From: an uncultured Opitutia bacterium | GTDB taxonomy: Bacteria; Verrucomicrobiota; Verrucomicrobiia; Opitutales; Coraliomargaritaceae | Reading direction: 5' to 3' | Length of the DNA stretch: 44,118 bases | Assembly (NCBI GenBank): GCA_913041275.1 | Contig: CAJWHF010000006.1 | Location: 1-44,118, forward strand | Shown: positions 16,530 through 20,656 of the stretch, piece after piece | How positions within the stretch are numbered: the first letter of the stretch is position 1 | How the letters are laid out: every line of letters starts with the position of its first letter | Position numbers and translations under genes: made by a program | The notes under the pieces: model-generated | What the model saw: the letters and a program-made list of their open reading frames with translations, nothing else | Told to the model about the DNA's origin: nothing | The model's database searches: none

Positions 16530-16558
16530 TTGACAGTCTATTACATACTTTGAATATT
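16530..16558 (+). promoter_or_regulatory. predicted promoter of the metal-uptake operon
   Basis: A consensus -35 (TTGACA, 16530-16535) is spaced 17 bases from AATATT (16553-16558), which matches the -10 consensus at four of six positions. Transcription would begin about seven bases later, close to the ATG at 16565, so the mRNA may be leaderless. The -10 lies inside the palindrome at 16542-16569, as expected for a repressor-controlled promoter. Confidence 0.55.
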
Positions 16559-16569
16559 CAAAGTATGTA
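16542..16569. promoter_or_regulatory. perfect 28-bp palindrome, probable operator of the metal-uptake operon
   Basis: The sequence from 16542 to 16569 is identical to its own reverse complement over all 28 bases; each half reads TACATACTTTGAAT. It covers the putative -10, the expected transcription start and the start codon of the substrate-binding lipoprotein. Perfect dyads in this position are usual for dimeric metal-dependent repressors (DtxR/MntR or Fur/Zur families). The sequence does not closely match the operator consensus sequences I know for those families. Confidence 0.75.
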
Positions 16570-17536
16570 CTTTTATAAGTCTTTTTTTAGTATTGTCTCT
16601 ATTTGTCTTACTGGACTTTTCGTTATTGGATGCTCTGAACAAGAGAATGATTCAGCAAATGTCTCCAGTAACCGATATCAAATAGTCTGTACGGTGGGTA
16701 TGATCACGGACATTGCGAAAAATGTAGCAGGAGAGTATGCACAGGTTGAGAGTGTGATTGGTGAGGGTGTAGATCCGCACGTCTACAAGCCGACGCGTGG
16801 AGATGTAGTTAGACTTACTCAGGCAGATGTCGTCTTTTATAATGGACTCTTACTAGAAGGTAAGATGACCGATATACTTGAGAGCGTCGCGACGAGTGGG
16901 AAGAAGGTTAAAGCAGTCACAGAGGCTATCTTGGAAGACACTGATTATCTTGTGGATAAGCCTGATGGTTCTGGGCGAACGGATCCTCATGTCTGGATGG
17001 ATGTTTCTGGTTGGCAGCGTGCGGTGTTAGTAGTATTAGCGACTTTGATTGATTTTGATCCAAGTAATGCAGAAATTTACAAATCCAATGCATCTGCTTA
17101 TATCGAGAAATTAAGCGCTCTCGATGGGTACGTTAAGGCCGCGATGTCTACCATACCTGAGTCGCAGCGGGTGCTTGTTACCGCTCATGATGCTTTCCAG
17201 TATATGGGCAAAGCTTACAGTATCGAGGTGAGGGGAGTCCAAGGGGTTAGCACGGAGTCGGAGTCAGGAGTGCACGACTTGGAGGAATTGGTCGATTTTA
17301 TTGTAGGTCGAAAAATTCCTGCCATATTTTTTGAGACCTCGGTAGCTGACAAAAATGTACGAGCTCTAGTTGAAGGTGCTCGTGCACGAGGCCATGATGT
17401 GCTTATAGGTGGGTCGCTTTATTCGGATGCAATGGGCCAACCTGGCAGCTACGAAGGTACTTATATTGGAATGATTGATCACAACGTTACGACTATTGTG
17501 AATGCTTTGGGCGGAGTCGCCGAGGGCTTTCGTTAG
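16565..17536 (+). CDS. metal ABC transporter substrate-binding lipoprotein (TroA/MntA/ZnuA type)
   Basis: A 323-residue cluster A-I binding protein that captures Mn, Zn or Fe outside the membrane and hands it to the permeases. From the ATG at 16565 there is a lipoprotein signal peptide with lipobox FVIGC (Cys23). The four metal ligands are readable: His72 in DPHVYKPTRGD, His142 in DPHVWMDVSGW, His208 in VTAHDAFQYMG and Asp288 in GSLYSDAMG. No His-rich loop typical of ZnuA is present, which favours Mn or Fe over Zn but does not prove it. An in-frame TTG at 16550 is a poorer start and would lengthen the signal peptide. First gene of a four-gene operon. Confidence 0.92.
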   Translation: MYFYKSFFSIVSICLTGLFVIGCSEQENDSANVSSNRYQIVCTVGMITDIAKNVAGEYAQVESVIGEGVDPHVYKPTRGDVVRLTQADVVFYNGLLLEGKMTDILESVATSGKKVKAVTEAILEDTDYLVDKPDGSGRTDPHVWMDVSGWQRAVLVVLATLIDFDPSNAEIYKSNASAYIEKLSALDGYVKAAMSTIPESQRVLVTAHDAFQYMGKAYSIEVRGVQGVSTESESGVHDLEELVDFIVGRKIPAIFFETSVADKNVRALVEGARARGHDVLIGGSLYSDAMGQPGSYEGTYIGMIDHNVTTIVNALGGVAEGFR

Positions 17537-17567: not shown

Positions 17568-18374
17568 ATGAACACAAGGAATAAGGTTATTATAAAAGAA
17601 AAAGATTTGGAATTAGACCTATCACTCCAGCCGTTGACCATAAGGGACTTAACGGTATCCTACAACCGTAAACCAGTAATATGGGACATTGATCTGTCTA
17701 TACCTAAAGGGTATTTGGTCGGCATTGTCGGACCTAACGGTGCAGGAAAAAGCACATTGATTAAGGCCTGCTTAGATCTTGTTCCGAGGACATCGGGCGA
17801 GGTAATGATCTATGGAAAAACCTACCATAAAGAGCGCAGGCGTGTGGGATATGTACCGCAACGCGAGAGTGTAGACTGGGATTTTCCTGTCAGTGTACTC
17901 GATGTGGTAGCCATGGGAACTTACGGGCGACTCGGTTGGATGCGCCGCGTTAGTAAGCGTTCGAAGGCTCTATCAATGGAGGCGCTCGATCGAGTAGGTC
18001 TAGTCGATTATGCGAATCGCCAAATCAGTCAGCTTTCTGGTGGGCAACAGCAGCGCACCTTTCTAGCTCGTGCACTGGTACAGGATGCGGATATTTATTT
18101 CATGGACGAACCCTTTTCTTCTGTCGACGCTGCGACTGAGCGTGCCATCGTTCAGTTGCTTAAAGATCTAAAGAAACTTGGGAAGACAGTTATTGTGGTT
18201 CATCACGATCTATCTACGGTTTCTCAGTATTTTGATTGGACTGTCCTACTTAACATGCGTGTTGTGTCTGCTGGCCCCACAGAAGAAGTCTTTAATCAAG
18301 ATAACTTGCGACGAACTTATGGAGGTAAACTGACTCTCCTCACTCAAGCGGCTAATGAAATAGCCAGGAATTAA
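17568..18374 (+). CDS. metal ABC transporter ATP-binding protein (TroB/ZnuC type)
   Basis: A 268-residue ATPase that powers metal import. Walker A is GPNGAGKST, the signature is LSGGQQQRTFLARAL, Walker B is IYFMDEPFSSVD, and the H-loop is VVHHDLSTV. The family-typical Q-loop region VGYVPQRESVDWDFPVSV is also seen and is characteristic of the manganese/zinc/iron group. I chose the ATG at 17568 (MNTRNKV), 31 bases after the upstream stop; the longer frame overlaps the upstream gene and its extra residues are not conserved-looking. The permease gene follows after 13 bases. Confidence 0.93.
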   Translation: MNTRNKVIIKEKDLELDLSLQPLTIRDLTVSYNRKPVIWDIDLSIPKGYLVGIVGPNGAGKSTLIKACLDLVPRTSGEVMIYGKTYHKERRRVGYVPQRESVDWDFPVSVLDVVAMGTYGRLGWMRRVSKRSKALSMEALDRVGLVDYANRQISQLSGGQQQRTFLARALVQDADIYFMDEPFSSVDAATERAIVQLLKDLKKLGKTVIVVHHDLSTVSQYFDWTVLLNMRVVSAGPTEEVFNQDNLRRTYGGKLTLLTQAANEIARN

Positions 18375-18387
18375 TCAAGTAATCCAT

Positions 18388-19737
18388 ATGCCTGAACTCG
18401 CCGACATATGGAATGTATTATTTTTGCATGATTATAATACACGACTGGTTGTTCTCTCAACTATGCTCTTGGGTTGCGCCTGTGGTTTGATGGGTGGCTT
18501 TCTTCTTTTACGCAAACGTTCATTAATGGGCGACACGCTCTCACATGCTACCTTGCCGGGAGTGGCTTTAGCTTTTATGTTAGCCGTAGCGCTAGGAGGT
18601 GATGGTAAGTCACTACATTTTCTCCTTAGTGGGGCAGCGATTACTGGCTTACTTGGTTGTTGGGCAGTTCTTTTTATTCGTAATAACACGCGAATCAAAG
18701 ACGACGCAGCTATGGGAATCGTGCTCAGTGTATCTTTTGGCACAGGCGTAGCCTTACTTGGATTGATACAAAATATGCCCGAAGGCAGTTCAGCCGGCTT
18801 AGAATCATTCATTTATGGTAAGACAGCGTCGATGGTTCTGAGCGATTTTCGGATCCTCTTGTTAGTCACGCTCTGTGTGCTTGTCTGCACGCTTCTTTTA
18901 TTTAAAGAGTTCCGTCTACTTTGTTTTGACGAGGGTTTTGCTGGGGCGCTTGGGTGGCGAGTTAGATATCTTGATGTACTACTGCTTGCCCTTGTCACAG
19001 CTGTGACAGTTACTGGATTGCAAGCGGTTGGATTAATACTTATTATCTCATTTCTTATATCGCCCGCTGCTGCCGCGCGTTTTTGGACTAATCAACTCGA
19101 CCGACTGTTATTACTATCGGCTCTAATTGGTGGGGTCAGTGCTTGGCTGGGAGCTAGCCTAAGCGCATTCTTTCCGCGGCTTCCAGCGGGCGCGGTTATT
19201 GTACTAGTCGCGACGACTTTCTTTATCGTAAGTATGTTAGTTGGAAGTGAACGCGGTTTGTTGATTCGTCACCTCAGGTTGAAGCAGTTAAAGATTCGTA
19301 TGGGGCGACAGCATTTATTACGCGCACTTTACGAGATATTAGAAGGCATCCGCCCGGAGGGTGACTTTGTCCTGCGTGCCGTTCCTCTAATACAGATACG
19401 AGGGCGCCGTACGTGGACGGATTCCCATTTACGAGCCTATATTCGTCGTGCCTGTAAGGAGGGATTGATCGAGACACCCACTTTTGATGGGTCAATTCGG
19501 TTAACTAAAATTGGTTTAGAAGAAGCCGCCTTAATGACTAGAAATCACCGACTCTGGGAGCTTTACTTAATTGAATATGCAGATGTTGCGACTAGTCGTG
19601 TGGATCGTGATGCTGACAGAGTCGAACATGTACTCGGTGAAGAGATAGTAAAGAGCCTTGAGAGCAAACTGCAGACTTACCAGAGCGCTGGTAGCCTTGT
19701 TCCTAATAGCCCGCACCCGATTGTATTAGGTGATTGA
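18388..19737 (+). CDS. metal ABC transporter permease fused to a DtxR/MntR-like regulatory domain
   Basis: A 449-residue two-part protein. Residues 1-295 form an ABC-3 permease (TroC/MntB type) with about eight helices and the conserved RKRSLMGDTLSHATLPGVAL. Residues 304-449 resemble a DtxR-family regulator: a winged-helix region (310-380, including HLRAYIRRACKEGLI and SIRLTKIGLEEA), then the metal-binding and dimerisation domain. There the ligand pattern is His387, Glu391, Asp406, Asp410, Glu413 and His414 (HRLWELYL; DADRVEHVLGEEI), and a SPHP remnant of the DtxR 'SPxG.PIP' segment is at 441-444. The two acidic ligands near the start of MntR appear to be His and Arg here. The tail would be cytoplasmic and could gate transport or repress the operon in response to metal. 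Confidence 0.88.
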   Translation: MPELADIWNVLFLHDYNTRLVVLSTMLLGCACGLMGGFLLLRKRSLMGDTLSHATLPGVALAFMLAVALGGDGKSLHFLLSGAAITGLLGCWAVLFIRNNTRIKDDAAMGIVLSVSFGTGVALLGLIQNMPEGSSAGLESFIYGKTASMVLSDFRILLLVTLCVLVCTLLLFKEFRLLCFDEGFAGALGWRVRYLDVLLLALVTAVTVTGLQAVGLILIISFLISPAAAARFWTNQLDRLLLLSALIGGVSAWLGASLSAFFPRLPAGAVIVLVATTFFIVSMLVGSERGLLIRHLRLKQLKIRMGRQHLLRALYEILEGIRPEGDFVLRAVPLIQIRGRRTWTDSHLRAYIRRACKEGLIETPTFDGSIRLTKIGLEEAALMTRNHRLWELYLIEYADVATSRVDRDADRVEHVLGEEIVKSLESKLQTYQSAGSLVPNSPHPIVLGD

Positions 19738-19741
19738 TACT

Positions 19742-20656
19742 ATGAGCTGGTATACAATAGACACATGGATTGTGGTGATTGGGGCCTTGGCCGCAACATC
19801 CTGTGCTTTACTGGGGAACTTTCTGGTACTGCGCAAAATGAGCATGATGGGCGATGCGATTAGCCATGCCGTGCTGCCGGGGTTAGCTCTTGCTTTCTTA
19901 GTTACTAGTGCCCGTACCAGTTTAGCGATGTTCATCGGCGCGGCATTAGTCGGCGTAATTACAGCGGTTTTCACTCAGTGGATAAGCCGCTTCGGTAAGG
20001 TAGATGAGGGCGCATCGATGGGAATCGTATTTACATCGCTCTTTGCCATCGGACTATTATTGATCGTACAGGCTGCTGACCATGTCGACCTCGACCCTAG
20101 CTGTGTACTTTATGGAGCGATCGAGTTAACTCCTCTCGATGTGATTTGGCGGCCGACACTTTTCGGATTAGAGTTTCATGTGCCTAGAGCTGCCTTAGTG
20201 CTGGGTGCAATAGTTGTGCTTAATTTAGGCTTTTTGATATCGTTTTTTAAAGAGCTTCGGATCTCTTCTTTTGACCCTGAACTTGCTACGACTATGGGCA
20301 TTAATTCCAACTTGGTTCACTACTTATTGATGAGCCTAGTCGCGGTCACGACAGTCGCTGCCTTTGAGGCAGTTGGAAGTATTATTGTAATTGCGATGCT
20401 TATTGTGCCTCCTGCGACGGCACTCTTACTGACAGATCGCCTCTGGATTATGGTGGTGCTAAGCGTGGTTTTCGCCTGCGCCTCTGCGCTATTCGGCCAC
20501 ATCAGTGCATTGGTCGTACCTAGTTGGTTCGGCTTTGATGATACCTCAACTTCTGGTATGATGGCAGTAGTTTCTGGACTACTATTTGCCCTTATTATGT
20601 TTGTAGCGCCTCGCCATGGATTATTAAGCAAGTGGTTTTATAACAAGTTTTTATAA
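19742..20656 (+). CDS. metal ABC transporter permease (TroD type)
   Basis: A 304-residue ABC-3 family permease with about eight transmembrane helices and the family block RKMSMMGDAISHAVLPGLAL, then MGIVFTSLFAIGLLL and the C-terminal FEAVGSIIVIAMLIVPPATA. It should pair with the fused permease to make the heterodimeric channel. It carries no regulatory tail. I chose the ATG at 19742, which has an AGGTGA ribosome-binding site at 19728-19733; a GTG at 19730 would overlap the upstream gene. It ends the operon and converges on the SMP-30 gene with no evident terminator in the 20-base gap. Confidence 0.92.
   Translation: MSWYTIDTWIVVIGALAATSCALLGNFLVLRKMSMMGDAISHAVLPGLALAFLVTSARTSLAMFIGAALVGVITAVFTQWISRFGKVDEGASMGIVFTSLFAIGLLLIVQAADHVDLDPSCVLYGAIELTPLDVIWRPTLFGLEFHVPRAALVLGAIVVLNLGFLISFFKELRISSFDPELATTMGINSNLVHYLLMSLVAVTTVAAFEAVGSIIVIAMLIVPPATALLLTDRLWIMVVLSVVFACASALFGHISALVVPSWFGFDDTSTSGMMAVVSGLLFALIMFVAPRHGLLSKWFYNKFL

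What the first reader, a model, noticed from the sequence alone, without database searches (positions are those of the whole stretch)
18388..19737. Metal-uptake permease fused to a DtxR/MntR-like metal sensor
One 449-residue frame contains an ABC-3 permease (1-295) and a DtxR-type regulator (304-449). Most DtxR metal-site positions are retained or replaced by Asp (His387, Glu391, Asp406, Asp410, Glu413, His414), but the N-terminal acidic ligands of MntR seem absent. A membrane-tethered sensor could gate the channel or repress its own operon at the membrane. Such fusions exist in some databases' annotations as far as I recall; their function is, to my knowledge, not settled.
Basis: partly seen in the sequence, partly recalled or inferred. 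Interest (0 to 1): 0.65.

Follow-up and report, generated by a model that had tools for sequence, protein, structure and literature searches.

The report
Metal importer with built-in metal sensor
In a marine verrucomicrobium, the membrane part of a manganese/iron-type importer carries a metal-sensing repressor domain at its end, the same design as YtgCR of Chlamydia; but the DNA switch of the importer genes follows a separate repressor, so here the fused domain more likely senses metal for the importer itself than switches genes.

Summary
The 449-aa frame is an ABC-3 permease (residues 1-~290) fused to a DtxR-fold tail (~302-441). Profile and fold searches confirm the tail; its metal ligands are nearly invariant in 56 relatives, and the 'missing' N-terminal ligand position holds a conserved His309. 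The architecture is known: Chlamydia YtgCR, whose tail is released as an iron-dependent repressor; fusions were reported earlier in 11 phyla. What is new concerns function. The 28-bp palindrome over the operon's -10 region and start codon (core ACTTTGA-N4-TCAAAGT) tracks a full-length stand-alone MntR, not the tail: 55 of 64 operons in genomes with that MntR, 2 of 28 without. It persists where the tail was lost (L083) and beside an operon without tails (L282). Where a short MntR replaces it, several fusion operons carry another operator. Within the tail the DNA-reading helix drifts (40% mean identity) while the metal half is conserved like the permease (68%, 66%); in stand-alone MntRs of the same genomes both are conserved (69%, 72%). 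Best reading: MntR controls transcription; the tail is a metal sensor acting in cis on the importer. The in-cis step is inferred; a YtgR-like role at other DNA is not excluded.

The parts
16530..16535 (+). -35 hexamer TTGACA of the operon promoter; a 17-bp spacer leads to AATATT (16553-16558) inside the palindrome
   Evidence: sequence; a TTGACN hexamer lies at nearly the same distance before the operator in all 23 other Opitutales loci printed
16542..16569 (.). 28-bp palindrome, operator A (core ACTTTGA-N4-TCAAAGT 16547-16564), covering the -10 region and the start codon of the first gene; most likely read by the stand-alone MntR
16565..17536 (+). TroA/ZnuA-type metal-binding lipoprotein, first gene (ATG lies inside the operator)
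   Evidence: Pfam ZnuA E 1.7e-77; nearest solved relative Treponema TroA, E 7e-74
17568..18374 (+). ABC ATPase of the importer (frame opens at 17502; start at 17568 inferred)
   Evidence: Pfam ABC_tran; closest NCBIfam models are Mn/Fe and Mn ABC ATPases
18388..19257 (+). permease part of the fusion, residues 1-290 (ABC-3)
   Evidence: nearest solved relative the Mn ABC permease 7kyp, E 3e-37
19291..19734 (+). DtxR-fold tail, residues 302-449: helix 1 runs on from the last membrane helix (291-321), HTH 334-357, wing 361-372, metal/dimer domain 373-433
19381..19503 (+). DNA-reading half of the tail (helices 2-3 and wing, residues 332-372), the fast-drifting part; R341 and W343 nevertheless invariant or nearly so
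19504..19677 (+). metal-binding/dimerisation domain, residues 373-430, with H387, E391, D406, D410, E413, H414
   Evidence: PF02742 match; conservation
19730..20656 (+). second permease, no tail here (in 20 relatives this subunit also carries a DtxR tail)

Best explanation
The gene is the C-type permease of a TroABCD/YtgABCD-like importer for manganese, iron or a similar divalent metal. Its cytoplasmic end is a DtxR-derived domain that binds the imported metal. Shown by sequence and comparison: the domain, its metal site, its wide conservation, and that the operon's palindromic operator goes with a separate stand-alone MntR. Inferred: when cytoplasmic metal is high, metal fills the tail; the change is passed through the helix that continues from the last membrane helix (residues 291-321) and lowers transport, a feedback (trans-inhibition) in cis. 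MntR meanwhile shuts the promoter by covering the -10 region and start codon. In lineages where both permease subunits carry tails, the two could pair as DtxR domains do.
For: Tail has DtxR fold and near-invariant ligands. Operator A present in 55 of 64 operons in genomes with full-length MntR and in 2 of 28 without (both borderline 12/16; chance rate 2.6%); Fisher p 3.5e-13, not corrected for ancestry. Double dissociation: L083 (G019) lost the tail but keeps operator A and full MntR; G206 (L282) has unfused permeases, one PF02742 protein (MntR) and an A site of 14/16 at the head of the gene row. Fusion operons with short MntR lack A and several have operator B instead, even inside the window's family (L068 = G014). 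MntR helix PGTxTxM is conserved across operator-A lineages. In 32 same-genome pairs the tail's recognition-helix/metal-domain identity ratio is 0.58 (0.51-0.66) against 0.97 (0.92-1.02) in MntR. Fused tails form one side of a supported branch (99/92) against stand-alones and share Trp390. In 20 loci both permeases carry tails with conserved metal-site residues.
Against: No transport, metal or DNA assay. The one studied relative, YtgR, is cleaved and represses transcription (PMC7755916, PMC6504234). The tail keeps a winged helix with basic residues and invariant R341; faster drift does not prove that it binds no DNA. The window's importer has one tail, so an in-transporter dimer is not possible there unless two fusion subunits pair. 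G019 lives without the tail. Nine operons counted with full MntR lack a recognisable operator A in the searched stretch.
Confidence: 0.45

Rival explanations
1. YtgR-like repressor: the tail is cut off (or acts while tethered) and represses transcription, at the same operon beside MntR or at other promoters.
For: Same architecture and gene order as Chlamydia ytgABCD, where the tail is released and represses in an iron-dependent way. Winged helix intact in the model, basic recognition helix, R341/W343 conserved.
Against: Operator A follows MntR and not the tail; no second palindrome other than terminator-like hairpins recurs within about 200 bp before the first gene; recognition helix drifts while the metal half does not; no flexible linker in the model, one helix 291-321 joins membrane and tail.
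Confidence: 0.3
2. The tail itself reads the 16542-16569 palindrome; stand-alone MntR acts elsewhere.
For: The palindrome sits at the head of the fusion operon and is usually the only copy in the genome.
Against: L083 lost the tail and keeps the palindrome; G206 has it without any tail; fusion operons without full MntR lack it.
Confidence: 0.08
3. Metal acceptor or buffer: the tail takes the metal from the pore and hands it on or stores it, without gating.
For: Conserved ligands plus an extra conserved His443 near the end.
Against: Full DtxR winged-helix and dimer domain is kept, more than a buffer needs.
Confidence: 0.1
4. Relic of an old fusion without present function.
For: Tail lost in one genus of the family (L083).
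Against: Ligand residues nearly invariant over wide divergence; metal half as conserved as the permease.
Confidence: 0.05

Closest known systems
YtgCR (CT069) of Chlamydia trachomatis, ytgABCD operon
   Same: Metal ABC permease with a C-terminal DtxR-like domain, third gene after binding protein and ATPase, second permease behind; permease-repressor fusions already reported in 11 phyla (PMC5599777)
   Different: YtgR is cleaved and represses ytg and trpBA; reviews stress the lack of other iron regulators in Chlamydia, whereas here a stand-alone MntR exists and the operator follows it. Not aligned here: no Chlamydia sequence could be fetched
DtxR/MntR/IdeR/ScaR/SloR/TroR regulators
   Same: Fold and metal-site positions (H79, E83, H98, C102, E105, H106 of DtxR correspond to H387, E391, D406, D410, E413, H414)
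   Different: Fused to a permease, no SH3/FeoA-like third domain, His at the Met10/Asp8 position, invariant Trp390, poorly conserved recognition helix
Trans-inhibited ABC importers MetNI and ModABC
   Same: Proposed principle: substrate-sensing cytoplasmic domain lowers uptake (reviewed in PMC10710835)
   Different: There the sensor domain is on the ATPase (own knowledge); here it would be a DtxR domain on the permease; inhibition not shown
TroABCD / PsaBCA importers
   Same: Binding protein closest to TroA, permease closest to the solved Mn ABC permease
   Different: Those regulators are separate proteins; no fused tail

Membership tests
DtxR/MntR domain family | Profile match to the metal-binding and dimerisation domain | tested here: met
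   PF02742 45.5 bits, cut-off 27
DtxR/MntR domain family | Winged-helix plus dimerisation fold | tested here: met
   Z 10.4 to DtxR over 119 residues; model pLDDT 72.9
DtxR/MntR domain family | Metal ligands at DtxR 79, 83, 98, 102, 105, 106 | tested here: met
   H387, E391, D406, D410, E413, H414, each in 52-56 of 56
DtxR/MntR domain family | N-terminal ligand (DtxR Met10, MntR Asp8) | tested here: inconclusive
   His309 at that position in 50 of 56, from the offset of the fold alignment
DtxR/MntR domain family | Metal-dependent DNA binding | not testable with these tools
   needs gel shift or footprint
YtgCR-type permease-repressor fusions | ABC-3 permease and DtxR tail in one frame within a metal ABC operon | tested here: met
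YtgCR-type permease-repressor fusions | Tail represses its own operon through the upstream operator | tested here: inconclusive
YtgCR-type permease-repressor fusions | Proteolytic release of the tail | not testable with these tools
   needs immunoblot
YtgCR-type permease-repressor fusions | Sequence relationship to Chlamydia YtgCR itself | not tested
Cluster A-I Mn/Fe/Zn ABC importers (TroABCD type) | TroA/PsaA-type binding protein, ATPase and ABC-3 permeases together | tested here: met

The most novel reading that the evidence does not exclude
DtxR-type metal sensors recruited as in-cis feedback (trans-inhibition) domains on the permease subunits of Mn/Fe importers across PVC bacteria, in some lineages on both subunits, independent of transcriptional control by MntR; Chlamydia YtgR would then be a special case that became a repressor.
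Probability: 0.4. Interest if true: 0.72.

Novelty: new variant of a known kind. Interest (0 to 1): 0.52.

Why it matters
Permease-DtxR fusions have been read through YtgR as transcription factors. Here the operon's operator tracks a separate MntR, with independent natural cases where tail and operator come apart. That turns the open question of what the tail does into a testable one and offers culturable hosts not known as pathogens (Coraliomargarita, Cerasicoccus, Rhodopirellula relatives). If in-cis feedback holds, it adds a new way to limit toxic metal uptake. The two operators and two MntR types also help annotate Mn/Fe regulons across Verrucomicrobiota and Planctomycetota.

Tried and rejected
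1) Tail as reader of the palindrome: rejected as the main reading. 2) Assembly or frameshift artefact: rejected, same frame in most relatives. 3) Binding protein ligand set: I first expected H/H/E/D from memory; the TroA alignment shows His in the 'TAHDAF' stretch, so H/H/H/D as in TroA, which leaves Mn, Zn or Fe open. 4) Internal start for a separate tail: M305 is Met in only 6 of 56. 7) Literature for a published gating role of DtxR tails: nothing found in three searches; only open-licence papers were searched. 8) A first conservation run used fewer genomes because minus-strand loci were missed; repeated with 32 pairs, same result. 9) In one search the A site of L282 was missed by the search window because an extra gene precedes the binding protein; it counts there as negative.

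Full report
WHAT IS THERE. The frame 18388-19737 encodes 449 residues. Pfam finds an ABC-3 permease (19-285, E 3.4e-63) and Fe_dep_repr_C (373-430, E 7.6e-12). The N-terminal HTH profile of DtxR is not hit, but the tail alone matches DtxR, IdeR, ScaR and SloR, and AlphaFold gives the whole winged helix plus dimerisation domain: in the full-length model a helix 291-321 runs from the membrane into the tail, followed by helices 334-340 and 345-357, a wing, and helices 374-397 and 412-433 (mean pLDDT 83.7). The tail-only model (pLDDT 72.9) aligns best with DtxR (Z 10.4, 119 residues), although Foldseek E-values are modest (best 3.7e-3).

METAL SITE. In 56 fusions the positions equivalent to DtxR H79, E83, H98, C102, E105 and H106 are H387 (56), E391 (56), D406 (52), D410 (54), E413 (56), H414 (55). 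The Met10/Asp8 position is His309 in 50 of 56. Trp390 within HRLWE is invariant in fused tails; the stand-alone MntRs compared have Ile, Leu or Val there.

SURROUNDINGS. The operon is a TroA-type lipoprotein (16565-17536), an ATPase, the fusion and a second permease without tail. The window lies in a 65% complete, 1.16-Mb draft genome near Coraliomargarita/Puniceicoccaceae. The same genome also holds a stand-alone, three-domain MntR at C2:6512-6712, 114 bits against PF02742 (L001).

DISTRIBUTION. Forty of 383 sampled genomes of the phylum have a fusion at 43% identity or more over both parts, others at 31-39%; relatives occur in Kiritimatiellota and Planctomycetota. In 20 loci, mostly Planctomycetota, the second permease also has a DtxR tail with conserved metal-site residues. 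All fused tails lie on one side of a supported branch (99/92) against stand-alone MntRs.

THE PALINDROME. TACATACTTTGAATATTCAAAGTATGTA (16542-16569) sits between TTGACA (16530) and the first gene, whose ATG (16565) is inside it; the -10 candidate AATATT is its centre, which suggests a leaderless or nearly leaderless message (inference). The TTGACN hexamer recurs in all 23 other Opitutales loci printed and the ATG at the operator's end in 20 of them. The core occurs in 25 of 56 related genomes, usually once and at this place, with no match to the reversed control pattern. In the phylum sample 19 of 383 genomes have it, 12 of them within 2.3 kb before a fusion; the control pattern occurs in 5 genomes.

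WHO READS IT. I compared operons by the stand-alone MntR in their genome. With a full-length MntR, 55 of 64 operons have operator A (12 of 16 positions or better); without, 2 of 28, both borderline and poorly palindromic (expected by chance 2.6% per stretch; Fisher p 3.5e-13, ignoring shared ancestry). Tail presence does not predict the operator, since nearly all operons in both groups have a tail. Two natural cases separate the two: L083 (G019) lost the tail cleanly, has one PF02742 protein, the MntR, and keeps a 16/16 operator; G206 has unfused permeases, one PF02742 protein, a divergent MntR, and an A-type site between that MntR and the gene row. In lineages whose stand-alone regulator is a short MntR (Cerasicoccus, several Planctomycetota, and G014 inside the window's own family), operator A is absent and in many loci a different palindrome, ATGTAGC-N4-GCTACAT, stands before the operon or the short mntR gene. 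From memory this resembles the E. coli MntR box. Full-length MntR is often encoded divergently beside the operon, and its recognition helix (PGTxTxM) is conserved in the operator-A lineages examined.

DRIFT OF THE DNA-READING HALF. In 32 genomes with both proteins, mean pairwise identity in the fusion is 0.66 (permease), 0.68 (metal/dimer part), 0.40 (recognition helix) and 0.36 (wing); in stand-alone MntR it is 0.72, 0.69 and 0.72 for metal part, recognition helix and wing. The tail is kept for metal, much less for a DNA sequence.

INTERPRETATION. Shown: fusion, fold, metal site, distribution, operator-MntR association. Inferred: MntR is the operon repressor; the tail senses metal for the importer. 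In-cis feedback has precedent in principle in MetNI and ModABC (PMC10710835), not with DtxR domains on a permease. The contrary precedent is YtgCR, whose tail is released and represses (PMC7755916, PMC6504234, PMC5599777); I could not fetch its sequence for comparison. Hence only 0.45 for the in-cis reading and 0.3 for a YtgR-like role at other DNA.

LIMITS. Associations across genomes share ancestry; MntR absence was judged by PF02742 in partly incomplete genomes; classification of operons into groups was made by hand; nine operons counted with full MntR lack operator A in the searched stretch (one of them, L282, has it further upstream); metal identity (Mn, Fe or Zn) is open.

Noticed in passing
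window 16530-16569: Conserved leaderless-looking promoter: TTGACN -35, operator in place of the spacer end and -10, ATG starting at the last base of the 20-bp operator in 20 of 23 Opitutales relatives as well as the window.
   Followed up: partly
L142 (G011:C4:130412) and L282:1742: Genes for outer-membrane-like proteins sharing the stretch TDRPDATES are preceded by operator A, once far from the operon and once at its head; possibly an outer-membrane metal channel in the MntR regulon.
   Followed up: partly
L068 (G014): Inside the window's family one genus has no full-length MntR, a short DtxR-type protein instead, and operator B at the start of the binding-protein gene: a regulator and operator swap with the fusion kept.
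   Followed up: partly
L071-L096 (20 loci): Both permease subunits carry DtxR-type tails.
   Followed up: partly
L059, L060, L061, L093: PVC-like fusion operons in draft genomes named Chitinivibrionales, Thiohalocapsa, Chromatiaceae and Spirochaetaceae: gene transfer or mis-binned contigs.
   Followed up: no
G044:C113:24 and G044:C142:33908 (L147, L284): Two operator-A sites in a 95% complete genome in which no PF02742 protein was found; reader unknown.
   Followed up: no
L287 (G369:C82) and L127 (G024): Operator A at the start of a 372-aa DtxR-domain ORF next to a FeoB-like GTPase frame (L287), and between the binding-protein gene and a FeoB-like gene (L127): iron may belong to the same regulon.
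   Followed up: no
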